A stretch of DNA of 64,000 nucleotides from a virus, in the IMG/VR virus record IMGVR_UViG_3300021964_009390, positions 62,001 to 126,000 of that record. One strand, 5' to 3'. The notes beneath the pieces are model-generated. The model searched no databases and was not told the origin of the DNA. It saw only the letters and a program-made list of their open reading frames with translations. The position numbers and the translations under genes were made by a program. Positions 6,953 to 63,484 of this stretch are shown here, piece by piece (within the stretch, counting starts at the first letter, position 1; every line of letters begins with the position of its first letter).

Positions 6953-6981
6953 TTGCGTAATTGCATGACACACTATATTAT
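6953..6981 (+). promoter_or_regulatory. Sigma70-type promoter, predicted leaderless
   Basis: TTGCGT, a 17-bp spacer and TATTAT. The -10 ends exactly 6 nt before GTG 6988, placing +1 on the start codon. Confidence 0.7.
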
Positions 6982-6987
6982 ATAGGT

Positions 6988-7221
6988 GTGTTTAAAAACA
7001 AAGCAGCATGGCGAGAAGCGATAAGTGACACGGTCATAGGTACCGTAATCAACTTTCCGCTCAACATGCTGGCCATGTGGTTCATATTCAAAGCAGAACT
7101 GACCGTATTGCAATCATCTGCGCTATTGTGGTTCATATTCACCAGCGTGGCTATTGTACGTAAATACTGTTTGAGAGTTTACTTTGAAAAAAAGTCAAAA
7201 GAAATAGTTGACTCAGAATAA
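6988..7221 (+). CDS. DUF7220-like small phage membrane protein
   Basis: 77 residues starting at GTG 6988. This start is chosen because the promoter -10 lies 6 nt upstream and because the family begins near KAAWREAISDTVIG. The sequence INFPLNMLAMWFIF, a second hydrophobic stretch and FTSVAIVRKYCLRVYF match the two-helix DUF7220 phage proteins (INFPLN...VRKY..R..F). Function unknown; two membrane segments predicted at about residues 15-34 and 41-58. Confidence 0.7.
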   Translation: MFKNKAAWREAISDTVIGTVINFPLNMLAMWFIFKAELTVLQSSALLWFIFTSVAIVRKYCLRVYFEKKSKEIVDSE

Positions 7222-7237
7222 TAAGCCTATATACTAT
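7208..7237 (+). promoter_or_regulatory. Sigma70-type promoter for the structured non-coding segment
   Basis: TTGACT, 18-bp spacer and TACTAT, predicting +1 near 7244. It is embedded in the 3' end of the preceding gene and is followed by about 700 nt with no convincing gene. Confidence 0.55.
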
Positions 7238-7243
7238 ATAAGT

Positions 7244-7965
7244 ATACGCCGCTGAGGTGGCATCGTTCTTTCACAATCAAATCAATTTAATTTATCAGAT
7301 CGACGGATCTGATAATGGGACGCTAGTAGAAGGAGCAACCTTAGCTCCACTAGCACACATGTCCTCGCTGCGGCGGGGGGTCGACGATCTAGTGATTGAG
7401 GCTAGCTGAAGGACAGCGATGTGGATACAATCCATCATGTGGTACATGTCTGCCAACCCTATAACTGAACTATAGGTATGATTCCTGGAGGTGAGCTGTA
7501 AAAGGCAAGGCCTTCCTTTGTCGCATAACAATGGATCTAGGAACATAGTGCGAACAAGATCTCGGTAGTAGAGGCTCAACGATCAAGTGATTCAGAGCGG
7601 GTTAAACACCCATCAAGTTGCAGAATCATTCTGGCGGTAACTAGAGACATGTTGAGAGAAGGCTGAAGAGTAGTCTCTCCCCAATCAATTTCATAAGGTG
7701 GTAACTGCGTAGCGGGCGCTGCCTTTAATTTGAATCCGGAACACCGGCTGTCTGTCACAACCCGCGGGACCCACTATATTAATATCCACGTCGTGTTACA
7801 CAGCAGCCGGTTTCCCCATTTTAACTTTGAGCGACACATGTGGGCCCGGAACGAACCACGGCGAGATAGAGCGCCCGGCAGGAACCGCGCAACCTGAACT
7901 CACGCTCCCTAGGCTCAACAATTTAGGTCGAAACACACACACTAATACAAAGAAAGGAAACAAAC
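7244..7965 (+). ncRNA. Candidate large structured non-coding RNA
   Basis: This is the longest stretch without a convincing gene. The reading frames present lack ribosome sites and phage-like composition. The plus strand holds many local hairpins: TTATCAGATC/GATCTGATAA (7293-7316, perfect 10 bp); CTAGT..GGAGC/GCTCC.CTAG (7323-7353); CCTCGC/GCGGGG (7363-7378); TGGAT/ATCCA (7421-7434); CCTATA/TATAGG (7458-7476). It is also more GC-rich than its neighbours, and AGGCTCAAC occurs at 7572 and 7912. A near-consensus promoter precedes it. No match to tmRNA, RNase P, rRNA or a group I intron core could be made by eye. Large ornate phage RNAs such as GOLLD and ROOL are the kind of family to compare with. 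The 3' end is not defined. Confidence 0.45.
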
Positions 7966-7970
7966 AAATC

Positions 7971-8177
7971 ATGGCAAGATCTGGATATGAAATACGTCTC
8001 GATGTGCTACGAATGGCAAAAGACCTGGCTGATGACCGATACCATCAGGAGCTGAACCGCCGGCAAGAAATTGCTACCCGGAACAACACTGAATGGTCAT
8101 TACCTAGCGACACAAGAGAGAAAGACTCTCTTAAAATCGCTGACGAGCTTTACGCCTTTGTAGAAGCGAAAGACTAA
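7971..8177 (+). CDS. Conserved small phage protein of unknown function
   Basis: 68 residues starting at ATG 7971, behind an AAAGGAAA ribosome site; an apparent upstream extension lies in the non-coding segment. The sequence MARSGYEIRLDVLRMAKDL...ELYAFVEAKD resembles a short, helical, charged protein common in T4-like marine phages. Function unknown. A strong terminator follows. Confidence 0.75.
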   Translation: MARSGYEIRLDVLRMAKDLADDRYHQELNRRQEIATRNNTEWSLPSDTREKDSLKIADELYAFVEAKD

Positions 8178-8191
8178 TCGCTCGACGAGCG

Positions 8192-15606: not shown

Positions 15607-15949
15607 AGACATAATTGAACATGTAGCGTATGAACGTGGCAAGTACGCGAGCCAGTCACACACATATGGTACACCGGATGGGGAAGAATACTTCCACACC
15701 AGAAGCAAACGAGACATAAAATATAGAGCTCGTGAGTATGCGATGGATGAAGAGGATGTCAGCAACTTGAAGATGTCACACAAATTGACCCAGGAACTCG
15801 ACCATGTGCTGATACAACTAGAAGAACTACTGTACATGCTGGGAGACCAACCAACACCACCTACAGAAGACGAGGTGCTCAACTATGTGATCGGTATGAT
15901 CGAGAGTGTAAAAGTCAAAAAGAATAAAGTTGCGATCAACAACAAATGA
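15596..15949 (+). CDS. Hypothetical protein (117 aa)
   Basis: Acidic helical protein; HVLIQLEELLYMLGDQ could form a coiled coil. Overlaps the upstream gene by 11 nt. The promoter of the next gene lies in its 3' end. Confidence 0.6.
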   Translation: MTHEDIIEHVAYERGKYASQSHTYGTPDGEEYFHTRSKRDIKYRAREYAMDEEDVSNLKMSHKLTQELDHVLIQLEELLYMLGDQPTPPTEDEVLNYVIGMIESVKVKKNKVAINNK

Positions 15950-15958
15950 GAATAATAT
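15930..15958 (+). promoter_or_regulatory. Sigma70-type promoter, predicted leaderless
   Basis: AAAG then TTGCGA, 17-bp spacer, TAATAT; the -10 ends 6 nt before ATG 15965. Confidence 0.75.
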
Positions 15959-15964
15959 CGAGAT

Positions 15965-16204
15965 ATGGAAAGGCAATATGAGTATAGAATAAAGTATCAG
16001 CATGCTGATGATGTGTTGACTAACTATCACTATTATCAAGCAGAAACTGCTGAACAAGCGCTCAATTACCAACTAGAGATGGTGGAACATCATGGCTGGG
16101 ACATTGAAATTCTCCAAGTGGAACGCAAATGCCCGTGGTCCGGGAATTGGGAAGATAAAAGCGAAGTATTAACAAATCAAACAACTACACAAATAAATGA
16201 ATGA
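15965..16204 (+). CDS. Small hypothetical protein (79 aa)
   Basis: MERQYEYRIKYQHADD... ending in a Thr/Gln-rich tail; probably a short alpha/beta domain with a conserved-looking AETAEQALNYQ helix. Predicted leaderless. Unknown. Confidence 0.6.
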   Translation: MERQYEYRIKYQHADDVLTNYHYYQAETAEQALNYQLEMVEHHGWDIEILQVERKCPWSGNWEDKSEVLTNQTTTQINE

Positions 16205-20247: not shown

Positions 20248-20453
20248 GCGACATGACTGAACAACAGCTAGACATGCTCCGTCGCAAGATCATCGAACGC
20301 GTCACCAGTGTGTTCACCAGTCGTCCCACGTGGGCCGCTCAACCATTTGTTGATCATGACACATACTCCAGCATCGAGCAAGCGATCAATGATGAGTTTG
20401 ACAAGCATCAGAAGTTGCATGTATCAGATGATGTTCATACTATAGAATCATGA
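20244..20453 (+). CDS. Small hypothetical protein (69 aa)
   Basis: MSDMTEQQLDMLRRKIIERV..., helical. The promoter for the following gene lies in its last 40 bases. Unknown. Confidence 0.55.
   Translation: MSDMTEQQLDMLRRKIIERVTSVFTSRPTWAAQPFVDHDTYSSIEQAINDEFDKHQKLHVSDDVHTIES
20415..20443 (+). promoter_or_regulatory. Sigma70-type promoter, predicted leaderless
   Basis: TTGCAT, 17-bp spacer, TACTAT ending 6 nt before ATG 20450; located inside the preceding coding region. Confidence 0.65.
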
Positions 20454-23560: not shown

Positions 23561-23589
23561 TTGCAGGTTTGATCGATCGTGCATACAAT
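23561..23589 (+). promoter_or_regulatory. Sigma70-type promoter, predicted leaderless
   Basis: AAAAG, TTGCAG, 17-bp spacer, TACAAT ending 6 nt before ATG 23596. Confidence 0.85.
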
Positions 23590-23595
23590 CATTAC

Positions 23596-23760
23596 ATGAC
23601 AGCGACAGATATAAAACACAAGAGACGTAAACAAGCCTGGGAGTCTTTACCAACACCTCGAGTGAGCTGGGAAGAGTTCAAAAGGATCAACGATCGTAGC
23701 AGCAGCATCGAACAAGCTGTGGTACGAGCCACAAGAATCACACAAAAGAAACACCGATGA
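23596..23760 (+). CDS. Small basic hypothetical protein (54 aa)
   Basis: Start at 23596 set by the promoter spacing. MTATDIKHKRRKQAWESLPT...TQKKHR, basic. Unknown. Confidence 0.55.
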   Translation: MTATDIKHKRRKQAWESLPTPRVSWEEFKRINDRSSSIEQAVVRATRITQKKHR

Positions 23761-24432: not shown

Positions 24433-24461
24433 TTGCACAATCTGAAGCAACATCATACAAT
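24433..24461 (+). promoter_or_regulatory. Sigma70-type promoter, predicted leaderless
   Basis: TTGCAC, 17-bp spacer, TACAAT ending 6 nt before ATG 24468. Confidence 0.75.
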
Positions 24462-24467
24462 CATAAC

Positions 24468-24614
24468 ATGAACGACACACTAGACATCATAGTCACTTTG
24501 ATCATGCTCACGCCAATGTTTCTGGTCTGTGCAGGTTTGATATACGACCTGTTCGCCAGTCACAACACACAACAACGCGTGTTGTTCGGATCGGTGCATC
24601 CGGACGAGCGTTAA
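24468..24614 (+). CDS. Small membrane protein (48 aa)
   Basis: Start at 24468 from the promoter; an in-frame ATGA-coupled ATG at 24408 could give a 20-residue longer form from read-through RNA. One or two hydrophobic helices (IIVTLIMLTPMFLVCAGLI). Unknown. Confidence 0.55.
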   Translation: MNDTLDIIVTLIMLTPMFLVCAGLIYDLFASHNTQQRVLFGSVHPDER

Positions 24615-25803: not shown

Positions 25804-25883
25804 AACCGAACAAATATTATTCACGTCACAATAAGTTAATGGGTTTGATATCAAGTGAACTAGTTGCCAGATCCCGCGCGTGA
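25800..25883 (+). CDS. Micro-protein (27 aa)
   Basis: ATGA-coupled frame, MKPNKYYSRHNKLMGLISSE then LVARSRA; basic. The next promoter lies in it. Coding status uncertain. Confidence 0.35.
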   Translation: MKPNKYYSRHNKLMGLISSELVARSRA

Positions 25884-25892
25884 CCATACAAT
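25864..25892 (+). promoter_or_regulatory. Sigma70-type promoter, predicted leaderless
   Basis: TTGCCA, 17-bp spacer, TACAAT ending 6 nt before ATG 25899. Confidence 0.8.
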
Positions 25893-25898
25893 CAACAT

Positions 25899-26048
25899 AT
25901 GATCAGAATAACCACACACATCATTTTAATGACAATGACACTCACCGGATTCCTCTGGTGGACACACACGCTGTGGCCGGCTTTCGAGATGGCGTACGAC
26001 TGCATCGTGAACGTGGTGAACCAGAACCTGCCGCCGGCCACTGAATAA
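25899..26048 (+). CDS. Small membrane protein (49 aa)
   Basis: MIRITTHIILMTMTLTGFLW with a following aromatic stretch, one helix. Start set by promoter spacing. Unknown. Confidence 0.55.
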   Translation: MIRITTHIILMTMTLTGFLWWTHTLWPAFEMAYDCIVNVVNQNLPPATE

Positions 26049-27292: not shown

Positions 27293-27321
27293 TTGTCCTT
27301 TAGAGCAGCTTTTGATATAAT
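27293..27321 (+). promoter_or_regulatory. Sigma70-type promoter ahead of a minigene
   Basis: AAAAAAG, TTGTCC, 17-bp spacer, consensus TATAAT ending 6 nt before ATG 27328. Confidence 0.8.
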
Positions 27322-27327
27322 TGTATT

Positions 27328-27351
27328 ATGTTCAGCGATAGAGGCAGTTAG
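27328..27351 (+). CDS. Seven-codon minigene or start of a small RNA
   Basis: ATG TTC AGC GAT AGA GGC AGT TAG (MFSDRGS) sits exactly at the leaderless position of a strong promoter. It might be a translated minigene, a decayed gene or simply the 5' end of a non-coding RNA. Confidence 0.3.
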   Translation: MFSDRGS

Positions 27352-27721: not shown

Positions 27722-27722
27722 A

Positions 27723-27887
27723 TTATTTGTCCTCCTTACTGTAATCTGCAAATGAGTAGCTTTCAACACTATCCTGAATCATCTCCATCACAATATCAAA
27801 AGCCTCTTCTTCATCAAAATGATCTCCAGGAAATGTTGATTCAATTTGATCTATACATTCTTTAACTAATTCTTTTAACTTATCCAT
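27723..27887 (-). CDS. Small acidic hypothetical protein (54 aa), paralogue of next gene
   Basis: MDKLKELVKECIDQIESTFP... strongly resembles the opening of the neighbour at 27924-28091 (MDRLKELIEYMMDQM), suggesting a local duplication. Predicted leaderless. Unknown. Confidence 0.55.
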   Translation of the reverse strand: MDKLKELVKECIDQIESTFPGDHFDEEEAFDIVMEMIQDSVESYSFADYSKEDK

Positions 27888-27893
27888 AATTGT

Positions 27894-27922
27894 ATTATCT
27901 TATAATTTGATCTAAAGGACAA
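27894..27922 (-). promoter_or_regulatory. Sigma70-type promoter, predicted leaderless (minus strand)
   Basis: TTGTCC, 17-bp spacer, GATAAT ending 6 nt before ATG 27887. Confidence 0.75.
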
Positions 27923-28105: not shown

Positions 28106-28345
28106 TTATTTTAAAACCTTATCTATTTCAGATTTAGCTACATCCTCAATAGCCATATTAGTATTTGTCATCACATTCTCTTCAGTATTCAACATCACTC
28201 CCTCTCTATCATCAGAAGAAGCTGCATCATACTCACCATCCTCCTCATTCATCTCTCTCAATTCAGTTAAGGATTGGAGATAGAATGTTTTGATGAAATG
28301 TTCAAACTGCTCAAAACTTATATCCTTTTCAGTATCAATTATCAT
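28106..28345 (-). CDS. Acidic hypothetical protein (79 aa)
   Basis: MIIDTEKDISFEQFEHFIKT... with a long acidic stretch (REMNEEDGEYDAASSDDRE). First gene of the AT-rich leftward block. Unknown. Confidence 0.6.
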   Translation of the reverse strand: MIIDTEKDISFEQFEHFIKTFYLQSLTELREMNEEDGEYDAASSDDREGVMLNTEENVMTNTNMAIEDVAKSEIDKVLK

Positions 28346-28351
28346 AAAATG

Positions 28352-28380
28352 ATTATATGAAGAGCTGATGAAATGGACAA
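28352..28380 (-). promoter_or_regulatory. Sigma70-type promoter, predicted leaderless (minus strand)
   Basis: AAAAAG, TTGTCC, 17-bp spacer, consensus TATAAT ending 6 nt before ATG 28345. Mirror-image of the rightward promoter at 28425, with which it forms an imperfect inverted repeat. Confidence 0.85.
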
Positions 28381-28424: not shown

Positions 28425-28453
28425 TTGCAGGTTTGAGCAGTTTTCACTATCAT
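28425..28453 (+). promoter_or_regulatory. Sigma70-type promoter, predicted leaderless
   Basis: AAAAAG, TTGCAG, 17-bp spacer, TATCAT ending 6 nt before ATG 28460. Confidence 0.8.
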
Positions 28454-28459
28454 GTTAAT

Positions 28460-28579
28460 ATGGAAAGAGAATATTACATAATGGAAGTAGAAGGAGCAGG
28501 ATGTTATTGTTTATGTTATGATGATGTAGATGGTAATAGAGTTGTTGTGGATTGGGATTTAGAGATAAGGGAGGACTAA
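28460..28579 (+). CDS. Small acidic hypothetical protein (39 aa)
   Basis: MEREYYIMEVEGAGCYCLCY then DDVDGNRVVVDWD; start set by promoter. AT-rich. Unknown. Confidence 0.55.
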   Translation: MEREYYIMEVEGAGCYCLCYDDVDGNRVVVDWDLEIRED

Positions 28580-28816: not shown

Positions 28817-28845
28817 TTGTCCTTTTCAAATGATCACCTTATAAT
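28817..28845 (+). promoter_or_regulatory. Sigma70-type promoter, predicted leaderless
   Basis: AAAAG, TTGTCC, 17-bp spacer, consensus TATAAT ending 6 nt before ATG 28852. Confidence 0.85.
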
Positions 28846-28851
28846 TAGAGC

Positions 28852-29100: not shown

Positions 29101-29106
29101 CATAAT

Positions 29107-41615: not shown

Positions 41616-41621
41616 ACAGTG

Positions 41622-44069
41622 ATGAACGTTACTAAAAGAAACGGTAAGAAAGAAAATTTTAATGAGGACAAAATACTAGCCTGTGTACGGAGAGCTTGTG
41701 ACGGTGATGAAGAACTTGTACAAAAAGTATATTGGAACACCAAACTAAATTTATATGATGGTGTCAAAACCAAAGAAATAGATGAATCTGTGATCAAATC
41801 TGCTCGGTCGTTGATAGAGAAAGACCCTAGATGTAAATACGTTGCTGCAAAGCTGTTGCTAGCTACAATATACAAAGAGGTGTTTGGTGAAGGTGCAGAT
41901 AGTGATGCTTTTGTGTTACAGTACAAAAAAACGTTCATTGTCAATCTGAAAAAACTTATCAAAGAGAAGATTGTTAACAAAGAGTTGGCTAAGTTTGATT
42001 TACAAAAACTGTCAGATGCGTTGGAAATTGATAGAGATTACAGGTTTGAATATCTAGGTTTGCAGACAGTATACGATAGATATCTTATGCATATCAATGA
42101 TGTGAGGATGGAGACTCCTCAAGCATTTTGGATGAGAGTTGCTATGGGGCTCGCGTTGAAGGAGGACCCGAATACTCGCGAAGAATGGGCCATAAAATTT
42201 TACAAGCAGATAAGCAGTTTCGATTTCATGTGCAGTACACCCACATTGTTCAACAGTGGTGGTACATTCAATCAATTGAGTAGTTGTTTTTTAAACACGT
42301 TCGAAGACAGTATCAACGGAATATTTGATGGTTTACATCAAGAAGCTTTGAAGAACAAATACGCTGGTGGTTTGGGTATGGATTTGACAAATTTCCGGGC
42401 ATGTAACAGTTACATTCGAGGGACTAATGGTTACACACAGGGTGCTGTGTATTTCTGGAAACTGTACGGTGACATGCTCACCGCGGTGAATCAAGGTGGT
42501 AAACGACGAGGCGCTGGATGCGCTTATTTAGAGACCTGGCATGCCGACATCGAGGATTTTATACAGCTCAGAAAAAACACTGGAGATGATCGCAAACGCA
42601 CACATGACATGAACACAGCCAACTGGATACCAGACTTGTTCATGAAATGTGTACAAAACGATGAACCATGGTATCTATTCAGTCCTAATGAAGTACCAGA
42701 GTTACATGAATTACATGGTCGTGAGTTTGAAAAAAAATATAAAGAGTATGTCAAGCGCGGAAAGAGGGGTGAGCTTAGAATATTCCGGGAAATTAATGCA
42801 AAAGATTTGTGGAAAAAAATGCTGAGAAGTTTATTCGAGACCGGGCACCCATGGATTACTTTCAAAGACCCTAGCAACACTAGATATAGTAATCAGCATG
42901 CCGGTGTAGTGCATAGCAGCAATTTATGTACCGAGATTTTATTACACACCAAAGCTACTCAATATCATGAAAACAGTCGGAAGGTGAAGTCTCACGGTGA
43001 AACGGCAGTGTGTAATCTGGGTAGTGTGAATCTGAAAAACCACGTAAAAACTGATGCAAACGGTAACGTTAGTATTGATTATAACAAATTGAAAAACACT
43101 GTCTCGTTAGGTTTACGTATGTTAGACAACGTGATAGATATCAATTTCTACCCGACAGAAGAGACTAAAAAAAGTAACATGACTCACCGGCCGGTTGGAA
43201 TGGGTAGCATGGGGTGGCATGACATGTACTATGCTCTAGGTATTGAATTTGATAGTGATGAAGCTGTGAAAATGAGCAGCGATTTGTATGAGTTCATATC
43301 ACATGCTTCGATTGAAGCAAGTTGTGGCCTGGCTAAAGAGCGTGGTAAATATCAGAGTTACGATGGTTCGTTGTGGAGTAAAAATGTTTTCCCTATGGAT
43401 ACATATAAAGATGTGATGAAGTTACGTGAGCATCGTGCCATGAGTCGTTCACGTGGTGATCTCGATTGGACCAAGTTGCGTGACAAAGTTAGTAAACATG
43501 GCATGAGAAACAGCAACACCATGGCGATCGCACCAACCGCTACTATATCTTCAATAACCGGATGTAGTCCGAGCATCGAACCGTATTTCTCTGTATTGTA
43601 TGTGTATAGTACACTAAGTGGTGAGTTCACAATGATTAACGAACATTTTGTAACAGACATGAAAAAATTAGGTAAGTGGGATGAATCATTGGTTGACGAC
43701 CTCAAGAGGACCGATGGAGATGTTTCTCAAATACCTACCGTACCTGAAGAGATAAGAAGGAAATATAAAACGGCATTCCAACAAGACCAAATGAAAATGA
43801 TCGAACAAGCCGGTGCCCGGCAGCGTTGGATAGATCAGGGGCAAAGTTTAAATTTATACAACAACGAGACCAGTCTGAAATACTTGAACGATTTGTACTT
43901 CCATGCGTGGAATCAAGGTCTCAAAACAACATATTACCTGAGGAATCAGAGCGCTAGCAAAATTGAGAAGAGTACAGTTTCTAAAGTGAGTGATCCAGCC
44001 ACTCCGGAGATTGAAAATATATCGGCATGTAGTCTCAATAATCCGGGGGAATGTGAGAGTTGTCAATAG
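41622..44069 (+). CDS. nrdA: Ribonucleoside-diphosphate reductase, large subunit (class Ia)
   Basis: 815 residues from ATG 41622. An N-terminal ATP-cone (MNVTKRNGKKENFNEDKILA) is present. Active-site region NSGGTFNQLSSCFLN, MDLTNFRACNSYIRG, RRGAGCAYLETWHADIEDFI, SSNLCTEILL, TATISSITGCSPSIEPYF and the redox-active C-terminal pair CESCQ are intact. Reduces NDPs to dNDPs with NrdB, supplying precursors for phage DNA. Start chosen because the -10 is 6 nt upstream. Confidence 0.97.
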   Translation: MNVTKRNGKKENFNEDKILACVRRACDGDEELVQKVYWNTKLNLYDGVKTKEIDESVIKSARSLIEKDPRCKYVAAKLLLATIYKEVFGEGADSDAFVLQYKKTFIVNLKKLIKEKIVNKELAKFDLQKLSDALEIDRDYRFEYLGLQTVYDRYLMHINDVRMETPQAFWMRVAMGLALKEDPNTREEWAIKFYKQISSFDFMCSTPTLFNSGGTFNQLSSCFLNTFEDSINGIFDGLHQEALKNKYAGGLGMDLTNFRACNSYIRGTNGYTQGAVYFWKLYGDMLTAVNQGGKRRGAGCAYLETWHADIEDFIQLRKNTGDDRKRTHDMNTANWIPDLFMKCVQNDEPWYLFSPNEVPELHELHGREFEKKYKEYVKRGKRGELRIFREINAKDLWKKMLRSLFETGHPWITFKDPSNTRYSNQHAGVVHSSNLCTEILLHTKATQYHENSRKVKSHGETAVCNLGSVNLKNHVKTDANGNVSIDYNKLKNTVSLGLRMLDNVIDINFYPTEETKKSNMTHRPVGMGSMGWHDMYYALGIEFDSDEAVKMSSDLYEFISHASIEASCGLAKERGKYQSYDGSLWSKNVFPMDTYKDVMKLREHRAMSRSRGDLDWTKLRDKVSKHGMRNSNTMAIAPTATISSITGCSPSIEPYFSVLYVYSTLSGEFTMINEHFVTDMKKLGKWDESLVDDLKRTDGDVSQIPTVPEEIRRKYKTAFQQDQMKMIEQAGARQRWIDQGQSLNLYNNETSLKYLNDLYFHAWNQGLKTTYYLRNQSASKIEKSTVSKVSDPATPEIENISACSLNNPGECESCQ

Positions 44070-44721: not shown

Positions 44722-44729
44722 AATAAATA
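44722..44729 (+). promoter_or_regulatory. Late-type promoter AATAAATA of nrdB, predicted leaderless
   Basis: The box ends 5 nt before ATG 44735. A late-type box for nrdB is unusual since nucleotide metabolism is normally early or middle. Confidence 0.75.
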
Positions 44730-44734
44730 AACAT

Positions 44735-45739
44735 ATGTCTACTAAATCAGGAAAAGTACTGGATGGAGATTCAGCCGGAGTCAATCAAATATTACCACAT
44801 GTCAACAAATGGGCATGGGACTTGTACAAGCAAGGTAAAAACAACAATTGGACTCCGGAGGAGGTGCCAATGACTAAAGACATACAAAACTGGAAACAAG
44901 ACGGTGTAATTAGTGATGATGAGCGTTTACTTATCAAAAGATGTTTGGGTTTTTTCGCTGGAAGTGAAAGTCTTGTAGGTAACAACTTGTTCACACTGTT
45001 CAAGTATGTAACTGATCCAGAGTGTCGCCAGTATATGGCTAGACAAATGTATGAAGAGTGTTTACATAATGATACAATAGTGTATATATGTGACAGTTTA
45101 GATCTAGATATAGACGAGGTATACGAGGCATACAACACGATCCCTAGTATTAAAGCTAAGGATGATTTTCTAATGAATGTGACCAAGGGTCTCGGTAAAC
45201 AGATTGACACATCAACAACTGAGGGTCAACGTGAATTGATCAAAGGAGCATTCATATATTGGATTGTATGTGAAGGTACATTCTTCTTCAGCGGTTTTGC
45301 TATGTTGTTAGCGTTATCTAGAAAAATCCCGGGTGTTTGTGAACAGATACAATATACATTGAGAGACGAGAGTATTCATATCAAATTCGGTACTACATTG
45401 TTGAACAAAATCAAAGAACAATACCCAGATGCATGGGATGACACCTTAGAGAATGAACTAGTAGAGAATCTAAAATCTGCTGTTGAGCTAGAGATACAGT
45501 ATGCTAAAGATGTATTGCCTCGAGGTATACTAGGGTTAAATGCTGATATGTTTGTCGATTACATGCAACATATTGCTAACCGTCGGTTGTCTGGGTTGGG
45601 TATGAAGTTCCGATACGACAAAGACACAAATCCGTTTCCTTGGTTGAGTGAAACAATCGATTTACAAAAGCAAAAGAACTTTTTTGAAACCAAAGTTACT
45701 GATTACCAAAATTCAGGGGCTTTGGATGACGATTTTTAA
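44735..45739 (+). CDS. nrdB: Ribonucleoside-diphosphate reductase, small subunit (class Ia)
   Basis: 334 residues. Ferritin-like diiron protein with ligand-bearing segments GFFAGSESLV, MYEECLHNDT, IYWIVCEGTFFFSGFAML and YTLRDESIHIKFG, and the C-terminal SGALDDDF tail that docks on NrdA. Generates the tyrosyl radical for NrdA. Confidence 0.97.
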   Translation: MSTKSGKVLDGDSAGVNQILPHVNKWAWDLYKQGKNNNWTPEEVPMTKDIQNWKQDGVISDDERLLIKRCLGFFAGSESLVGNNLFTLFKYVTDPECRQYMARQMYEECLHNDTIVYICDSLDLDIDEVYEAYNTIPSIKAKDDFLMNVTKGLGKQIDTSTTEGQRELIKGAFIYWIVCEGTFFFSGFAMLLALSRKIPGVCEQIQYTLRDESIHIKFGTTLLNKIKEQYPDAWDDTLENELVENLKSAVELEIQYAKDVLPRGILGLNADMFVDYMQHIANRRLSGLGMKFRYDKDTNPFPWLSETIDLQKQKNFFETKVTDYQNSGALDDDF

Positions 45740-46664: not shown

Positions 46665-46693
46665 TTGACAATGATCAATCTATAGCTTAATAT
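46665..46693 (+). promoter_or_regulatory. Sigma70-type promoter, predicted leaderless
   Basis: Consensus TTGACA, 17-bp spacer, TAATAT ending 6 nt before ATG 46700. Its -35 overlaps a minus-strand TTGTCA, so the two directions may compete. Confidence 0.85.
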
Positions 46694-46699
46694 AATAAC

Positions 46700-46876
46700 A
46701 TGAACAGACATTTGAAATACCATCTCCGTTGGCAATGCGGGTTTCTTGTATGTTACCCGACCATGTGGCTGTTCTCAGACTACATGCAATTACCATTGTG
46801 GTTGAGCGTGGTCCTGTTTCAATTTGTTGGTGCATCAATATTTTACCATGTGGATAGGTACATTTTTAAAAAATAG
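46700..46876 (+). CDS. Small two-helix membrane protein (58 aa)
   Basis: MNRHLKYHLRWQCGFLVCYP..., hydrophobic segments around MWLFSDYM and LSVVLFQFVGASIFYHV, and end YIFKK. Resembles short membrane proteins seen in T4-like marine phages. Unknown function. Confidence 0.6.
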   Translation: MNRHLKYHLRWQCGFLVCYPTMWLFSDYMQLPLWLSVVLFQFVGASIFYHVDRYIFKK

Positions 46877-46906
46877 TTGGACATATTACAATCTAGACTA
46901 TATAAT
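46877..46906 (+). promoter_or_regulatory. Sigma70-type promoter, predicted leaderless
   Basis: TTGGAC, 18-bp spacer, consensus TATAAT ending 6 nt before ATG 46913. Confidence 0.7.
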
Positions 46907-46912
46907 AACTAT

Positions 46913-47596
46913 ATGAAAACAACAAAAGTTGTAACAACCATCGTGGCTTTTGTAGCAGCAGCTGCAGCAGTCTCTAGTGTTCACGCAGATTCTCATGGAT
47001 CCAACCTCCGGGGCTCCGCCAGTGTAGGTTTCGCTAATGAGAACTATTACAGAGGTGCCGATCTAGGTGATGACACAATCAAAGTTGGAGTCGAGGCTAG
47101 ATCCAATCTAGGTGGTGTGGGAGTGTTCGGTAGTGTTGTAGCTGACCAATCCACAGGATCTGCAGCAGATCAATACTACATTTCCGCCGGGTTAGCTAGT
47201 AAATTGTTCGAAGACTCAGTCAATTTCTCTGGTGGTTACTTGCACCGAGAAGGTGTACCGGGTGATGCCACAGGAGAGCTATTCACCAGTTTCGGACTAG
47301 ATGTCGCATTGTCACCAACAGGCATTGTGTACTATGATATTGATAATGAGTTGTGGACTCTAGAGCTCGGCATCAAGCATGAGTTTGATCTAGAAGTGGC
47401 CAAGCTATGTGTACATGGTACCATTGGAGAAACTGAAGCAACTGCAGCAATTGATCGTACATATTGGTCTACTGGTGCAAAACTCACCAGAGGTGTGACC
47501 GACAATGCAGATGCAGTGCTAGGTCTTGACTACGTAGATGCAGACGGTATTGAAGATGATCTCGTGTTGACCGCTGGACTTACATTTAAATTTTAG
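46913..47596 (+). CDS. Porin-like outer membrane beta-barrel protein
   Basis: 227 residues. Signal peptide MKTTKVVTTIVAFVAAAAAV ending SVHA, then SVGFANENYYRGADLGDDTI and alternating amphipathic strands to the C-terminal LTAGLTFKF, whose terminal Phe is the outer-membrane insertion signal. Fits the TIGR02001-like family of small proteobacterial outer membrane proteins. A phage gene of this sort could mask or replace a receptor during infection or alter permeability. A strong terminator follows it. Confidence 0.75.
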   Translation: MKTTKVVTTIVAFVAAAAAVSSVHADSHGSNLRGSASVGFANENYYRGADLGDDTIKVGVEARSNLGGVGVFGSVVADQSTGSAADQYYISAGLASKLFEDSVNFSGGYLHREGVPGDATGELFTSFGLDVALSPTGIVYYDIDNELWTLELGIKHEFDLEVAKLCVHGTIGETEATAAIDRTYWSTGAKLTRGVTDNADAVLGLDYVDADGIEDDLVLTAGLTFKF

Positions 47597-48112: not shown

Positions 48113-48120
48113 AATAAATA
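48113..48120 (+). promoter_or_regulatory. Late-type promoter AATAAATA, predicted leaderless
   Basis: The box ends 5 nt before ATG 48126. Confidence 0.8.
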
Positions 48121-48125
48121 ATAGT

Positions 48126-48536
48126 ATGAAACAGCAACAACCAGGGACCCCGTTGGTCAACAAAGATTTAGATGTACCCGTATTCAAACCTAGGATACCT
48201 AGTTATTTAATGAAACAAATGGATGATCATAACAAATTTTTATTAGAACAAATATCTGTCATGAAACAACAAAATGAATGGCAGACGGATCTGGTCAGCA
48301 AGATATATAATTACACCAAAACTATAAACGGTAAAGTGGTGGAACTGGAAAACTTCCGGCATCGAATGGAAATAGAGATGGAACTAGATTCCAAGTGGGA
48401 CAAACGAGAGGCCAAATTGAACCGGATCAAAAAATGGAGTGTTATAGCTTTTTTAGGATTGCTATACCCGTTGTACTTGACAATAGTCAACCACATAGGC
48501 TTTGGTAACATTGTAGAGAATCTTTTGAAATTTTAA
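48126..48536 (+). CDS. Coiled-coil protein with C-terminal membrane helix (136 aa)
   Basis: Soluble coiled coil (LLEQISVMKQQNEWQTDLVS...) and one membrane helix near the C-terminus (SVIAFLGLLYPLYLTIV). Immediately upstream of another membrane/coiled-coil protein, so the two may form a complex. Unknown. Confidence 0.6.
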   Translation: MKQQQPGTPLVNKDLDVPVFKPRIPSYLMKQMDDHNKFLLEQISVMKQQNEWQTDLVSKIYNYTKTINGKVVELENFRHRMEIEMELDSKWDKREAKLNRIKKWSVIAFLGLLYPLYLTIVNHIGFGNIVENLLKF

Positions 48537-50569: not shown

Positions 50570-52389
50570 GTGTTTATAAATTTTAACAAGTTTTTAGCAA
50601 AGTGATCGTGCTGTATATCGTCTTTGTTCATTGTTTTCAAATATTCATGACCCCGGGCGAGCATGCATGACAACTGCGTTTGAGAGTTCAATATGTGTTG
50701 TAGGTGTGTCACATTTGAGTAATAGCATGGATATGTATCACCTAGGTACTCCTGTACTGCCGGGTGCTTGTTTATCAACACAGGTATGTTACCGGCGATC
50801 ATTTCCAGTATTGTGTTGTTTGCAGATGCGTCTATAACGTTAACTACTACAATGTTGTTGCTCACAATATATTTATATTCGTCTGGGTTTTGTACATATT
50901 TTAACTCTACGCTAGACGTATCTATATATTCCTGTAGCATGGCGGATTCATTACCCAGCAACGTTTTCATTTTACTAGATTCTTTCCACCCACTCAACCA
51001 TAGTTTTTTTCTAGTTGTATTCACACGATATAGTGTAGACATGTATCTCATTTGCTGCCCGATCTGTACAATACATGTATCTGGATCGTTAATAATTCTG
51101 TCAATATTACACGGTGGCATGCTGTTTAAATCAACCGGGTGTTTGGTAGATAATACCGGGATATTTCCAACACGAGGTTCAATATACGATTTTAAATACT
51201 CAGACATCACGATCAATCCTTTGCACCATGGTATACTGGCTACGTAGTTTCGGTTTTTTAGTAATGTGTTAACATTGGCGATATCTAAATAATCTGGAGT
51301 GTTTGGAGTGATGTGAATTATACCAACCCAATCACTCGTCATGGGTTGGTTGTTGTCCCACACAAAATATTGTTCTGTACAGTCTAATAAATTAATATTT
51401 CCATGATCATGTAAGATCCCAGTTTTTTCTAAATTGTGAATAACATCCGGCCAACCACCGGCGTGTTGACGTGCATCACCTTTACTAAACGTGGTTGTAT
51501 GCAATTTATATGTATTATACATACTAGTCCAATATAATCTGGAGCTACCAGACAACCATGGTTGATGCATGCCTAATGAGTTTTCTTGCCATGATGTTTC
51601 ACTTGAAAACTGATGACCTACATCTCGAGGAGCAACACGACCTAGATCATGTTCTAGAATGGTTTTACTATAAAAAACATCCTCCGGTGGGTAGTCTAGT
51701 GGTTTGTTTAAATGTTCCAACCCGTTCATGTAGTTTCTGGTACTATCGTTGATGGTCAAATTTTTCGGTGAATGTGTGTTCAAACAATCGATCATAACTT
51801 GTCTTGTGCGTAGTGAAAAGCCTCCATTACCTACACCCAGTTCATTATCATCCTGTCCAACCGGCCACGGTGCACCAACATAGTCGTATTTCATGAACAT
51901 GTCAATACCGCCATGATTAATGTCTGTGTCCTGTTGATATACTAGAATTTTCTCACCGGTTAGTGCCTCCCATAACGGTTTGGATAACATCATGTTGTTG
52001 TACACGTTCTGGTCAAATTCATGCTCATGCGTCCATCCCATCTCATTCGCATTTATCACCTGTATATCGTTGCTGATATTGTTACACATGGATTTGATAA
52101 ATTCATGGTTAGTGTTTGTGCATATCACACAATGCTCCCAGCTTGAACCCATCAAGTGCACCACTTTTCTAATTATATATTCTATATGGGGAAGTTTTCT
52201 GTTTTCTATAATTACTGTTTGATTGACTGCTGAAATTGATTGAGGTATATTTAGTTTCCGTGCATGTGGTATTTGAGATATACAATTGACCGCATGGTGG
52301 TATTGTTTGTTGATAATGATCTCATGCCACGGGTCGTTCGTGTATGTACGTAGTCCGGTCTTTTGATCACATGCATGCTTTATTTGCAT
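50566..52389 (-). CDS. Two-domain glycosyltransferase (DUF5672 + GT-B-like)
   Basis: 607 residues. N-terminal 300: ILVYQQDTDINHGG, YDYVGAPWPVGQDDNE and LGVGNGGFSLRTRQVM match DUF5672, a GT-A-like domain. C-terminal 300: HITPNTPDYL, LIVMSEYLKSYIEPRVG and TKHPVDLN look like a GT-B acceptor/donor half, with ANNTILEMIAGNIPVLINKH at the position of the GT4 E-x-x-x-G-x-P motif. Two fused transferases could build a disaccharide that the coupled sulfotransferase then sulfates. Confidence 0.75.
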   Translation of the reverse strand: MQIKHACDQKTGLRTYTNDPWHEIIINKQYHHAVNCISQIPHARKLNIPQSISAVNQTVIIENRKLPHIEYIIRKVVHLMGSSWEHCVICTNTNHEFIKSMCNNISNDIQVINANEMGWTHEHEFDQNVYNNMMLSKPLWEALTGEKILVYQQDTDINHGGIDMFMKYDYVGAPWPVGQDDNELGVGNGGFSLRTRQVMIDCLNTHSPKNLTINDSTRNYMNGLEHLNKPLDYPPEDVFYSKTILEHDLGRVAPRDVGHQFSSETSWQENSLGMHQPWLSGSSRLYWTSMYNTYKLHTTTFSKGDARQHAGGWPDVIHNLEKTGILHDHGNINLLDCTEQYFVWDNNQPMTSDWVGIIHITPNTPDYLDIANVNTLLKNRNYVASIPWCKGLIVMSEYLKSYIEPRVGNIPVLSTKHPVDLNSMPPCNIDRIINDPDTCIVQIGQQMRYMSTLYRVNTTRKKLWLSGWKESSKMKTLLGNESAMLQEYIDTSSVELKYVQNPDEYKYIVSNNIVVVNVIDASANNTILEMIAGNIPVLINKHPAVQEYLGDTYPCYYSNVTHLQHILNSQTQLSCMLARGHEYLKTMNKDDIQHDHFAKNLLKFINT

Positions 52390-52395
52390 GTATAT

Positions 52396-52423
52396 AATTA
52401 TTGTTACAATATTTGATTATCAA
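52396..52423 (-). promoter_or_regulatory. Sigma70-type promoter, predicted leaderless (minus strand)
   Basis: TTGATA, 16-bp spacer, ATAATT ending 6 nt before ATG 52389. Confidence 0.5.
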
Positions 52424-60900: not shown

Positions 60901-62120
60901 TTGTAATCTCGTTGCTGATGTCCAGATTCTCCGCTCCATAAGTTTTGTGTACTCAATCTTTCTTTACCTGTCAATTGATTTTTGAGTGTCAACATATTTA
61001 CTGGTAGGGAATTTCCAGTTAGATAATAATATTCAGAATGTAACAAATGATTACTGAGCAATCCTTGGGTCGAGGTGTTTGTATTTACATTCAAATTGCT
61101 CAAATCATTGGATTGCTCATAGTTTACAATTTTAGAATCTAACCTAACATCACTTAATTTTGTTGTCGGTGGTCTAACACGCATGGCAGTCCGGTCTGTG
61201 AGTTCCAGTACGTTAGGGTAATTAGTGTCAATATCAAAATCGCTCCCGGGATCTGAGACATGATATTCCGGGAGTATAGTTGTCAATCGTAATGGTGGTA
61301 CCCCTGCGAACGCTGGTTTGGCGCGGTCTTCATCCGATATTAACTCCACAATTTTCATTTTCGAAAAATGTTCCTTGTATAATCGTATGATATTATGATC
61401 TCTGTAGTATGTATATTTAAATAAGTGTCGTTCATCAGAAAATAGTGCAATGATTTCCTCCGGGTCATGTTCTAGACCCGGTTCCAATACACCTTCTTCA
61501 AATTGCAGTTCTGCTGATCCATCGTCTCTATGACATAAATAGTATCTAGATTCACCATCCACGTGACTCACAACACAATCAACACCGTTTATAAAAGTTA
61601 TATTGAAGTAAAATTTTTGTTCTAGAGTGTCTCTCAATTTAGCTCCAATAAATTTTTCAGCGCTTAATTTTTTTGTCACGGTAGTGAGGTCTGCCCCAGT
61701 AGATCTTCCGGTTTGGTCTGTCAATATAGTCAAATATTCTGACACTGTATCATCTTCAGCAAGAGCACTCACCGCGCTAGCAGCGGTCAAACAAGTTTCT
61801 CCACTCAAAGCGCTCAAGCCACTCAATGGATCGTTGTTCAGTCTATTGAATGCTAAATATGTTGAAATCGTCTCCGGGTATTCATCCGGTAGTGGTTTTA
61901 ATCTAATTATATCAGATATTTTATGCTGATCTGTAAGATAAAAATTGGTAAACTTGTTAAAAGTAATGTCGTTAGTGTTGTTGAGCCCACTATGATATTT
62001 AAACGAAATACCTTGTTCAAATGAAATTGGTTCATGTATAACCTCAATAGTAGGGTCTAATCGATAGTCCAGCTGCAACGGAGGCATGACCTGTATACCA
62101 TCTATTGTGTTTGATTGCAT
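57966..62120 (-). CDS. Large structural protein with LamG-like domain (1384 aa)
   Basis: Largest gene in the window. The middle contains propeller-like strands (YALLSTGDILEIDHDGVVLA, NLWVIHSGNVLSKFTKNRD). Near residues 1190-1280, NICVNINNNTGRVEVYIDGH and ELLVGASPYLNETT form a concanavalin/LamG-type carbohydrate-binding sandwich. The C-terminal ~80 residues look like an attachment domain. Probably a tail-fibre or baseplate protein that recognises a surface glycan. Confidence 0.65.
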   Translation of the reverse strand: MQSNTIDGIQVMPPLQLDYRLDPTIEVIHEPISFEQGISFKYHSGLNNTNDITFNKFTNFYLTDQHKISDIIRLKPLPDEYPETISTYLAFNRLNNDPLSGLSALSGETCLTAASAVSALAEDDTVSEYLTILTDQTGRSTGADLTTVTKKLSAEKFIGAKLRDTLEQKFYFNITFINGVDCVVSHVDGESRYYLCHRDDGSAELQFEEGVLEPGLEHDPEEIIALFSDERHLFKYTYYRDHNIIRLYKEHFSKMKIVELISDEDRAKPAFAGVPPLRLTTILPEYHVSDPGSDFDIDTNYPNVLELTDRTAMRVRPPTTKLSDVRLDSKIVNYEQSNDLSNLNVNTNTSTQGLLSNHLLHSEYYYLTGNSLPVNMLTLKNQLTGKERLSTQNLWSGESGHQQRDYNKLFTGTNQLQGADRIYFDYTVKQFEIEFRSGMNYFNTPQNMDPVKRLNINDSKLYECGAIGSDNPSRSDKIYKQRANYSDTTRWGDPTDEHTGTWLCTWLSAGDDPSVQPVWVDRYYNPSTSSYISALTSVSDPHNTYTSVQADAIFARGDGVYDKTSDLTLEPGCMYAYYRVSSRDMVNNLKQFDPVYIQKGLDEYTSTTNLPKTITNDNQEYVLDGSTYGKIKNTKQLGNEMGTELSIAFDINIKNWQSPVGHQLFGNYTNSGIGLFNTNDVSPFVFVLGSDGTSVGQVTQNTSIRIYDKKFKLYNYVTNNGHLKDTDTPGYFVDIVVREFPDNIYALLSTGDILEIDHDGVVLASYNSWNKHYGTGFTNTISDLTYDNRYIYILTHTGTGEHDYDINTFDMVNKTFTVNSTVCQVAIPVPDEFIDNSVYDYGRGIKSGPPNLLTVKDDPPPYQHTRNIYVGYGDSIKVGDDTLWIHVKGLRDSLSGFQTKHDAVYGLDIKTLQLLPGKMYDTGVEDTNLKLSVQDYTVDTADNLWVIHSGNVLSKFTKNRDIISTQILDEREVMSIVITRSFESGDIVENLLVLSRSIGGEELGVQIGPSSHPTALLNGRAYRKASGWYQSGTFYSRPTTTAEIVNYDTDDETVPFDDTQHIIYPFIEGDSRFGTHVQDIDTIVSTDRTGIVLNDDYSALTEDFDYLVTEVDDTIFVENIDPVTNKIVDTIQLPTLTVTDINNFPSMITSHAYTKNNFEKYHKHGLNLKMLLQPKFAAAEPDLVNLKIDLSEWNSNLPYTGYHNICVNINNNTGRVEVYIDGHLNETDNVYTFEPGKYTFNNMFTRELLVGASPYLNETTVQSKIKNYTTYTTRDTCVKNINIVNKCLTRADIVCLMLSYSEVDDIKWALPNGLRNLIEGVDQVFNHSLPPRKSNNFNMNVRNSEIKSTQLQQYITNKLRKTLDQITPAGTKIVGVNWYNEILD

Positions 62121-62126
62121 TACTAT

Positions 62127-62134
62127 TATTTATC
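62127..62134 (-). promoter_or_regulatory. Late-type promoter GATAAATA (minus strand)
   Basis: The box ends 6 nt before ATG 62120, giving a leader of 1 nt at most. Confidence 0.75.
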
Positions 62135-62162
62135 GACACATACACTATTCACTACATGTATA

Positions 62163-62705
62163 TCAGTCTATAACTTGTAATGACATGTTTTGTATAGTCG
62201 AGTCCGTAAAAGGGTATTGTCTAGATGTAGAGATTGTATATCCAGCCGGGCCTTGTATTATCAAGTCCACTGACCCCACTTTAGTTGGTACTGGTAATTC
62301 AAATGTGATTGTGTTATCATTAAACTCATCCCATTGAGGAACAACCACACCAGTGAATTTAGGGTATTCTGTTTTCAACCGATTGGTGTAGTTTTTTTCA
62401 AAATAACCGTATTGTTGTTCATTTATGAACATGTCAGGTACACTAGCACTTAAAAATATATTGTTAGTGTCGTACATTCTGTAACCCCTTACATACACTG
62501 TTGGTGTTTCTCCAATCCCGACCACCATTTGCTTGGTTGTGTTACTCAAAGAAAACCATGTTATATCTGGTGCGCCCCGAAAGACATCCCCCCGGTTTCC
62601 TGAGCGGCTGCCTAAATTATCTTGTTTCACATTGTCAGCGTATTCGTCTAGGGCTTGTTTATCAATAATTTTTGTACGTAGCGTGTTGTTCGGGTCTTTG
62701 TTCAT
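62163..62705 (-). CDS. Probable structural protein (180 aa)
   Basis: Begins MNKDPNNTLRTKIIDKQALD; beta-rich, with VRGYRMYDTNNIFLSASVPD and a C-terminal VDLIIQGPAGYTISTSRQ. Lies between the gp15-like and the 1384-residue genes, 1 nt after the gp15 stop. Late module position suggests a tail or baseplate part. Confidence 0.6.
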   Translation of the reverse strand: MNKDPNNTLRTKIIDKQALDEYADNVKQDNLGSRSGNRGDVFRGAPDITWFSLSNTTKQMVVGIGETPTVYVRGYRMYDTNNIFLSASVPDMFINEQQYGYFEKNYTNRLKTEYPKFTGVVVPQWDEFNDNTITFELPVPTKVGSVDLIIQGPAGYTISTSRQYPFTDSTIQNMSLQVID

Positions 62706-62706
62706 G

Positions 62707-63471
62707 TCATTGCGGATTGTCTGGATTATTATTCAGGTTTTTCCAATCAGTCAAACTACCTCCAGTGATATCATCTAGTGACGAAACATTGACGTAGTTT
62801 GTTTGGATGTCAAAAATCGTACCGGTGCCTGTCGATCTAGGTTTAGTAAACAACCAGCCTTTTATCGTGAATCCTGTGTTAGCCGATACTCGGTATGCGG
62901 AGCTGGCTTGCAAATCTTTCGGGTAATCCATGTTAATGGTACCATTCCACAGCACTTCCGACCGGATTTCTTGTATTGGTGCATCTGGGTCTAGAAATGG
63001 GTCAACACTTTTACTACCTTGCGGTATTTTCCATGATAATATTATGTACGGGTTCGCATAAGGTGCAAAATTAGTAATTATCTGGTCTAAATCAGACTGA
63101 TATTTTGTCATAATGTCCATCGTAACCTCTATATTCACTGGGTTCACCGGAGGTAATTTATCGAATGCATTACTAGCTTCTCGGTGACTGTATCTTTGGG
63201 GGTATGAGAAACCTTCAATTTTGTTAAAAACTCTACCCGGGTCACGCGCGATACTATTCATGGACACGGCGATCACCGGTAATTGAATATGCTGACTCTT
63301 GTTTATAAGGTCGTGTACAACGCGTTGCTTATGCGCGTAAACATATCTCGGTTCAAAAGATTTTGTAGGTTTTCTATCTTTATTGTATCTCTTTACAATT
63401 GTCTCATCAAAAGCTGATAAAAATTGTGTTATTAAATCTTTTACCTCAAAGTTAAATGTATGATATCTCAC
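62707..63471 (-). CDS. Tail sheath stabiliser / completion protein (T4 gp15-like)
   Basis: 254 residues from GTG 63471 (VRYHTFNFEV), set by the late box exactly 5 nt upstream. VNPVNIEVTMDIMTKYQSDL and DQIITNFAPYANPYIILSW match the gp15 signature (I-x-x-x-L-S-I-x-T-R-Y-x-D-D...Q-I-x-x-x-F-x-P). gp15 caps the contractile sheath and joins tail to neck; this marks the phage as a myovirus. Confidence 0.75.
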   Translation of the reverse strand: MRYHTFNFEVKDLITQFLSAFDETIVKRYNKDRKPTKSFEPRYVYAHKQRVVHDLINKSQHIQLPVIAVSMNSIARDPGRVFNKIEGFSYPQRYSHREASNAFDKLPPVNPVNIEVTMDIMTKYQSDLDQIITNFAPYANPYIILSWKIPQGSKSVDPFLDPDAPIQEIRSEVLWNGTINMDYPKDLQASSAYRVSANTGFTIKGWLFTKPRSTGTGTIFDIQTNYVNVSSLDDITGGSLTDWKNLNNNPDNPQ

Positions 63472-63476
63472 ATAAT

Positions 63477-63484
63477 TATTTATC
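63477..63484 (-). promoter_or_regulatory. Late-type promoter GATAAATA (minus strand), predicted leaderless
   Basis: The box ends 5 nt before GTG 63471 and overlaps the helicase stop codon. Confidence 0.75.

What the first reader, a model, noticed from the sequence alone, without database searches (positions are those of the whole stretch)
6953..63484. Fixed promoter-to-start spacing predicts genome-wide leaderless mRNAs from two promoter classes
At about 20 sites a TTGNNN-16/17/18-TATAAT-like promoter has its -10 ending 6 nt before the start codon (starts 6988 GTG, 12561, 15965, 20450, 23596, 24468, 25899, 27328, 28460, 28852, 29107, 30177, 40282, 41622, 46700, 46913; minus 27887, 28345, 38988, 52389; 29363 with 7 nt). 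At seven sites a late NATAAATA box ends exactly 5 nt before the start (31025, 36247, 39373, 44735, 48126; minus 40931, 63471 GTG). Given standard -10 and T4 late spacing, both rules put +1 on the first base of the start codon. Two unrelated promoter types converging on the same geometry, including GTG starts, argues for selection. Leaderless mRNAs are known in bacteria and a few phages, but a whole phage operon set built this way appears unusual.
Basis: partly seen in the sequence, partly recalled or inferred. Interest (0 to 1): 0.88.

Follow-up and report, generated by a model that had tools for sequence, protein, structure and literature searches.

The report
Leaderless mRNA promoters in Far-T4 phages
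In a large, uncultivated, T4-related group of phages, two unrelated kinds of promoter sit at exactly the distance from the gene that makes the RNA begin on the first letter of the start codon, so many genes probably make mRNAs with no ribosome-landing leader; this can be tested now in two cultured Pelagibacter phages that share the late-gene half of the pattern.

Summary
Of 28 listed sites, 27 have the stated geometry (29363 with 7 nt, as stated); minus 52389 has only a weak -10 at 7 nt with a 15-bp spacer. Six sites front doubtful or tiny ORFs. The distance peaks are sharp against dinucleotide shuffles. In the window, -35/-10 pairs ending 6 nt before called starts number 12, against 0.2 expected; late boxes at 5 nt number 5, against 0.03. 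Out of sample in the same genome, late boxes at 5 nt number 9, against 0.14. The window lies in a 222-kb Far-T4 phage, and related contigs show the same peaks: 87 late boxes at 5 nt (0.8 expected), 33 early pairs at 6 nt (2.0 expected). Box position is conserved while flanks are saturated. Shine-Dalgarno signals are rare. A gp55-type late sigma is encoded. T4 and cyanophages lack the late peak; cultured Pelagibacter myophages HTVC008M and Mosig have it. Best explanation: leaderless or near-leaderless transcription of many operon-first genes. 'A whole operon set' is overstated: about half of divergently oriented first genes carry such a promoter, and gp23 has an SD-like sequence. phiYS40 and Deinococcus are precedents, so this is a new variant of a known kind. 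No RNA ends were mapped.

The parts
6953..6990 (+). early promoter TTG-17 spacer-TATTAT, 6 nt, GTG start 6988
   Evidence: ORF 77 codons
12526..12563 (+). early promoter, TATAAT, 6 nt, ATG 12561 (DUF932 gene)
   Evidence: G000:C1:76221-76260
15930..15967 (+). early promoter, TAATAT, 6 nt, ATG 15965
20415..20452 (+). early promoter, TACTAT, 6 nt, ATG 20450
23561..23598 (+). early promoter, TACAAT, 6 nt, ATG 23596
24433..24470 (+). early promoter, TACAAT, 6 nt, ATG 24468 (weak coding score)
25864..25901 (+). early promoter, TACAAT, 6 nt, ATG 25899 (49 codons, no coding signal)
27293..27330 (+). early promoter, TATAAT, 6 nt, ATG 27328 (only 7 codons open; not a normal gene)
27885..27922 (-). early promoter, GATAAT, 6 nt, ATG 27887
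28343..28380 (-). early promoter, TATAAT, 6 nt, ATG 28345
28425..28462 (+). early promoter, TATCAT, 6 nt, ATG 28460
28817..28854 (+). early promoter, TATAAT, 6 nt, ATG 28852
29072..29109 (+). early promoter, TATTAT, 6 nt, ATG 29107
29327..29365 (+). early promoter, TATTAT, 7 nt, ATG 29363 (38 codons, no coding signal)
30142..30179 (+). early promoter, TACAAT, 6 nt, ATG 30177
38986..39022 (-). TATAAT with 16-bp spacer, 6 nt, ATG 38988 (weak coding score)
40247..40284 (+). early promoter, TATCAT, 6 nt, ATG 40282
41587..41624 (+). TAATAT with 17-bp spacer, 6 nt (CATAAT at 8 nt is an alternative reading), ATG 41622, class Ia ribonucleotide reductase large subunit
46665..46702 (+). TAATAT, 6 nt, ATG 46700 (58 codons, no coding signal)
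46877..46915 (+). early promoter, TATAAT with 18-bp spacer, 6 nt, ATG 46913
52387..52423 (-). claimed early site, not upheld: AATAAT at 7 nt, 15-bp spacer, ATG 52389 (DUF5672 gene)
31012..31027 (+). late box CATAAATA, 5 nt, ATG 31025
36234..36249 (+). late box AATAAATA, 5 nt, ATG 36247
39360..39375 (+). late box CATAAATA, 5 nt, ATG 39373
40929..40944 (-). late box TATAAATA, 5 nt, ATG 40931
44722..44737 (+). late box AATAAATA, 5 nt, ATG 44735, ribonucleotide reductase small subunit
48113..48128 (+). late box AATAAATA, 5 nt, ATG 48126
63469..63484 (-). late box GATAAATA, 5 nt, GTG 63471, T4 gp15-type tail sheath stabiliser; GTG and box conserved in relatives
32623..32638 (+). further late box at 6 nt, ATG 32636
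62118..62133 (-). further late box at 6 nt, ATG 62120 (1384-aa protein)

Best explanation
The window belongs to an uncultivated Far-T4 (T4-related) phage. It transcribes many of its operon-first genes as leaderless, or nearly leaderless (0-4 nt), mRNAs. Early genes use a sigma70-type promoter (A)GTTG-N20-TAtaAT placed so that host RNA polymerase starts 7 nt after the -10, on the A (or G) of the start codon. Late genes use a T4-type ATAAATA box, read by the phage's own gp55-like late sigma, placed so that the start 6 nt after the box is again the first base of the start codon. Ribosomes then initiate on the 5'-terminal AUG/GUG without a Shine-Dalgarno sequence; operon-internal genes also mostly lack one. 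Shown by sequence: the fixed geometry, its conservation across the clade, its absence in T4 and the cyanophages tested, SD scarcity, and presence of gp55. Inferred: that both elements are active promoters, that +1 is the first base of the start codon, and that the mRNAs are translated as 5'-terminal AUG messages.
For: (1) Sharp peaks against dinucleotide shuffles in the window, outside it and in relatives. (2) Exact late motif over whole genomes: own 23, nine relatives 3-17 each (85 in all), against 0-4 at a control offset. (3) Early motif: own 20 against 1 for the reversed pattern; G001 5, G002 5, G003 7. In three relatives' early regions, 32 starts at d=6 against 0-3 at other offsets, apart from 5 at d=0 and 19 at d=9, the latter mostly the second ATG of ATGATG. 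(4) Footprint: in 30 de-duplicated head-protease genes, ATAAATA at -12..-6 keeps pairwise identity 0.52-0.87 while most columns upstream of -16 are 0.25-0.37; the gp15 gene keeps GTG in 10 of 11. The 117 open frames with the box at 5 nt fall in 28 protein families. (5) Initiation chemistry: -1 is T/C in 76 of 87 box genes against 302 of 478 others; no TTG start among 110 promoter-linked genes against 28 of 478 others. (6) Boxes mark first genes: exact box at 5 nt in 7 of 94 divergent-first against 2 of 316 operon-internal genes; either promoter class 51% against 13%. (7) SD-like 4-mers in 12.5% of other genes against 5.8% shuffled. (8) gp55 homologue, E=3e-32 in this genome, also in five relatives. 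(9) Negative controls for the late motif: T4, S-SM2, phiM12, KVP40, P-SSM2, S-PM2, CP220, PhiW-14, RM378. (10) HTVC008M has 9 sites and Mosig 8 against 0; the seven HTVC008M sites in the 50 kb read fall on deposited CDS starts. (11) T4 late promoters are an 8-bp TATA box about one helical turn upstream of the start, without a -35 (PMC2988020).
Against: No RNA 5' ends are available. About half of divergent-first genes show no such promoter, and gp23 has an SD-like AAGGAG. The late distance has a 6-9 nt tail. The out-of-window early signal in this genome is weak (3 against 0.24, comparable to neighbouring offsets). Several listed sites front no convincing gene. The host is unknown, so its promoter rules and its ability to translate leaderless mRNA are assumed.
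Confidence: 0.85

Rival explanations
1. ATAAATA (and part of the TATAAT signal) is an A/T-rich translation-initiation element in the Shine-Dalgarno position of leadered mRNAs, not a promoter.
For: It sits where an SD would, and these genomes are SD-poor.
Against: Early sites carry a TTG at 16-18 bp, so they are two-part promoters. Exact boxes are nearly absent from operon-internal genes, 2 of 316. A gp55 late sigma is encoded. In T4 the same box lies farther upstream with a separate SD.
Confidence: 0.07
2. Genome compaction alone: short gaps between genes push promoters against start codons, with no selection for leaderless mRNA.
For: Boxes often sit in gaps of about 11-45 nt.
Against: Compact T4 and cyanophages show no 5-nt peak. 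The distance is single-base sharp in both classes and kept across diverged homologues.
Confidence: 0.05
3. RNAs start a few bases upstream or downstream of the start codon, giving ultrashort leaders of 1-8 nt rather than strict leaderlessness.
For: The 6-9 nt tail of late boxes, and natural scatter of start selection after a -10 box (general knowledge).
Against: The modal distances are exactly those expected for +1 on the start codon in both classes; -1 pyrimidine enrichment, and purine-first codons only at promoter-linked starts.
Confidence: 0.2

Closest known systems
phiYS40 (Thermus thermophilus phage) leaderless middle/late mRNAs (PMC3594737)
   Same: A large lytic phage in which most middle/late mRNAs are reported to lack leaders.
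   Different: Thermus host. Not compared here by sequence. Here the late class is a T4 gp55-type promoter, and early sigma70-type promoters are leaderless as well.
Leaderless genes with a -10 motif 6-7 bp upstream of ORFs in Deinococcus (PMC12340547; survey PMC3160421)
   Same: Same -10-to-start distance and the same logic; validated there as promoters of leaderless mRNA.
   Different: Cellular genes described by a -10 motif next to the ORF; here it is a phage, with a conserved (A)GTTG -35 and a second promoter class read by a different sigma.
Pelagibacter myophages HTVC008M and Mosig EXVC030M
   Same: ATAAATA ending 5 nt before the start (9 and 8 sites); gp55 in HTVC008M.
   Different: The early 6-nt class was not seen in HTVC008M; some HTVC008M genes keep AGGAG-type SD sequences. 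No leaderless report on Pelagibacter phages turned up in the papers searched.
T4 late promoters (TATAAATA, gp55)
   Same: Same box, and a gp55 homologue.
   Different: In T4 the box lies about 12-28 nt upstream, often with an SD between.
Far-T4 phages (PMC4360716)
   Same: Freshwater, uncultivated T4-related group defined by divergent g23/g20/g17; the window's phage has the long divergent MCP and many environmental relatives.
   Different: That paper contains none of the words promoter, sigma, gp55 or leader, and reported no transcription-regulation core genes; gp55 is found here.

Membership tests
Leaderless gene (promoter-defined) | -10 element at transcription-start distance from the start codon, above chance | tested here: met
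Leaderless gene (promoter-defined) | mRNA 5' end on the start codon | not testable with these tools
   needs 5'-end mapping
Leaderless gene (promoter-defined) | ATG/GTG, not TTG, as start | tested here: met
   0 TTG of 110 promoter-linked genes against 28 of 478 others
T4-type late promoter | ATAAATA box upstream of structural genes | tested here: met
   head protease, head-tail adaptor, gp15
T4-type late promoter | gp55 late sigma encoded | tested here: met
   phrog_234, E=3e-32
T4-type late promoter | gp33 co-activator and gp45 clamp encoded | tested here: inconclusive
   not found by tblastn in the 144 kb plus short loci then held, so only part of the genome was covered
T4-type late promoter | no -35 element needed | not tested
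   no -35 scan of late sites was made
Far-T4 phages | T4-like MCP (gp23), divergent and longer, with uncultivated environmental relatives | tested here: met
   518 aa; 33% to cyanophages; PF07068 E=1.6e-89; at least 599 relatives in IMG/VR
Far-T4 phages | placement in a g23/g20/g17 tree with published Far-T4 contigs | not tested
   published contigs were not fetched
phiYS40-like leaderless programme | phage-driven IF2/IF3 shift during infection | not testable with these tools
   needs infection data

The most novel reading that the evidence does not exclude
Far-T4 phages, and in their late genes pelagimyophages, run a general leaderless, SD-independent expression programme. Some encode their own ribosomal protein bS21, which remodels the host ribosome towards 5'-terminal AUG or SD-less phage mRNA. 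bS21 was found in four leaderless Far-T4 relatives and both pelagimyophages, not in T4 or three cyanophages; it was also not found in this window's own genome or in two fragmentary relatives.
Probability: 0.15. Interest if true: 0.85.

Novelty: new variant of a known kind. Interest (0 to 1): 0.63.

Why it matters
It would mean that one of the most widespread T4-related phage groups in fresh water expresses many genes, early and late, without Shine-Dalgarno leaders, by coupling promoter position to the start codon. It gives a direct rule for finding true gene starts in these genomes, where SD-based annotation fails (GTG starts and small early genes). It also constrains the unknown hosts to bacteria that read a TTG/TATAAT promoter and translate leaderless mRNA well, and makes the idea testable at once in cultured Pelagibacter phages.

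Tried and rejected
Host assignment: two GTDB scans with the capsid protein gave one distant hit (41%, Paludibacteraceae MAG); that locus shows no 5-nt or 6-nt peak and this genome shows no Bacteroidota TAnnTTTG peak at a fixed distance, so no host is claimed. The first pattern search used a wrong -35/-10 spacing and is ignored. blastn against known phages found nothing. A conserved AGGAGT-like spacer in relatives' early promoters was considered as an SD (6-nt leader) and set aside: it ends 1 nt from the ATG, and other members read AGTTGT or AGGTGT. The early class was looked for in HTVC008M and not found.
Full report
WHAT WAS CHECKED. The window is bases 62001-126000 of a 222,461-base virus record from IMG/VR. 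All 28 claimed sites were read and scored. Nineteen of twenty '6-nt' early sites and the one 7-nt site are as described, almost all with TTG at a 17-bp spacer; minus 52389 is not (AATAAT at 7 nt, 15-bp spacer). All seven late boxes end exactly 5 nt before the start codon. Six sites front weak or absent genes: 27328 opens 7 codons, and 24468, 25899, 29363, 38988 and 46700 have little coding signal. At least one further early site (14258) and three near-fitting late boxes (32636, minus 62120, 9800) were not listed.

IS IT MORE THAN CHANCE. Without gene calls, ATG follows TATAAT at 6 nt 10 times in the window (about 1.6 per other offset), and follows ATAAATA at 5 nt 7 times in the window and 8 times in 80 kb of the same genome outside it. 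With ab initio gene calls and dinucleotide shuffles: window early d=6 12 against 0.21, late d=5 5 against 0.03; outside the window late 9 against 0.14, early 3 against 0.24 (the early signal there is weak and not above neighbouring offsets); relatives late 87 against 0.78, early 33 against 2.0. My gene caller placed several of the listed starts upstream of the promoter-linked codon (for example 27 nt upstream at 6988, 12561 and 23596), so the window count is conservative.

WHAT THE PHAGE IS. gp23 (PF07068, E=1.6e-89) is about 33% identical to cyanophage gp23 and has at least 599 IMG/VR relatives, the best 80 at 64-88% identity. This fits the uncultivated freshwater Far-T4 group (PMC4360716); its tree placement was not redone here. 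That paper does not discuss promoters and reported no transcription-regulation core genes, but a gp55-type late sigma is present here (E=3e-32) and in five relatives.

CONSERVATION. In 61 related loci (760 genes) ATAAATA ends 5 nt before 87 starts, then 27, 15, 5 and 15 at 6-9 nt, and drops to a few at other offsets. The 117 open frames with the box at 5 nt belong to 28 protein families, and 41 of 45 loci of 8 kb or more have at least one such site. In the head maturation protease gene (30 de-duplicated sequences) the box columns stay conserved while upstream columns are near saturation; in the gp15 tail-sheath stabiliser, the gene behind window 63471, GTG is the start in 10 of 11 with the box at 5-6 nt in most. 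Whole-genome counts of ATAAATA-N5-ATG: own 23; nine relatives 15, 13, 17, 10, 9, 3, 5, 8, 5; a 12-nt control gives 4 in the own genome and 0-1 in each relative. The strict early motif gives 20 in this genome (1 reversed control), 5, 5 and 7 in G001-G003, and none or one in G004 and G005. In early regions of G001-G003, 32 starts lie at 6 nt against 0-3 at other offsets, except 5 at d=0 and 19 at d=9; the 19 are mostly the second ATG of a recurrent ATGATG.

PROMOTER OR RIBOSOME SIGNAL. Early sites are two-part promoters. Box-type signals are enriched at divergent-first genes and nearly absent from operon-internal ones (exact late box at 5 nt 7 of 94 against 2 of 316; either class 51% against 13%). 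Promoter-linked starts are ATG or GTG, never TTG, and are mostly preceded by T or C, as expected if the start codon's first purine is +1. SD-like 4-mers are rare (12.5% against 5.8% shuffled in genes without these signals). gp23 itself has an SD-like AAGGAG upstream, so not every gene is leaderless.

CONTROLS. T4 and cyanophages S-SM2, P-SSM2 and S-PM2 have no 5-nt late peak, nor do phiM12, KVP40, CP220, PhiW-14 and RM378. In T4 the box lies about 12-28 nt upstream, often with an SD in between. Two cultured Pelagibacter myophages do have it: HTVC008M 9 and Mosig 8 against 0, and the seven HTVC008M sites in the 50 kb read coincide with deposited CDS starts. The early class is not visible in HTVC008M. 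One search used a mis-spaced pattern and is not evidence either way.

KNOWN PRECEDENTS. Bacterial leaderless genes with a -10 box next to the ORF are established (PMC3160421; PMC12340547, 6-7 bp in Deinococcus, with reporter tests). phiYS40 of Thermus is reported to make most middle/late mRNAs leaderless (PMC3594737). The T4 late promoter is an 8-bp TATA box about one helical turn from the start (PMC2988020); that the box spans -13 to -6 is my own knowledge. So the strategy is a known kind. The combination (T4-type late plus sigma70-type early, single-base geometry, a ubiquitous uncultivated clade) was not found in the papers searched (ten searches of open-licence PMC papers), and is rated a new variant.

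LIMITS AND LEADS. No RNA data exist here, the host is unknown, and relatedness among loci inflates raw counts (28 families is the fairer number). bS21 ribosomal protein genes occur in four of the relatives and both pelagimyophages but not in T4 or three cyanophages, nor in this genome. Published freshwater bS21 phages were predicted to infect Bacteroidetes, and bS21 was proposed to select phage transcripts (PMC9723584). A link to leaderless translation is a guess on few genomes.

Noticed in passing
L115:4004-8727, L116:6818-13340 (-), L117:11207 and 12037 (-): Early regions of relatives are arrays of small genes, many with their own TTGAC...TATAAT promoter, a conserved AGGAGT/AGTTGT-like 6-nt spacer and a doubled ATGATG start; the spacer may be a sigma discriminator rather than an SD.
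   Followed up: partly
G001, G002, G003, G005, HTVC008M, Mosig (L119-L124): Ribosomal protein bS21 genes in phages with the leaderless geometry, absent from T4 and three cyanophages tested; not found in the window's own genome, G004 or G006.
   Followed up: partly
window 27300-29450, both strands: A cluster of small genes whose early promoters share an extended AGTTGTCC-TTT-GAGCAG sequence beyond the -35, suggesting duplicated modules or an activator site.
   Followed up: no
window 32058-36199: Three proteins matching the galactose-3-O-sulfotransferase PHROG, with a further sulfotransferase and glycosyltransferases at 18-2989: probable surface or polysaccharide modification genes.
   Followed up: no
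window 11968-12420, minus: Phage Hsp20 gene (PF00011) preceded by a clear AGAAAGGAGGTG Shine-Dalgarno, unlike most genes here.
   Followed up: no
L013:1160-1200: The major capsid gene gp23 has an SD-like AAGGAG and no exact late box nearby; its expression may rely on read-through or another signal.
   Followed up: no
L114: A 41%-identical capsid protein on a 375-kb contig binned as a Paludibacteraceae MAG (yak cecum): possibly a very large related phage.
   Followed up: no
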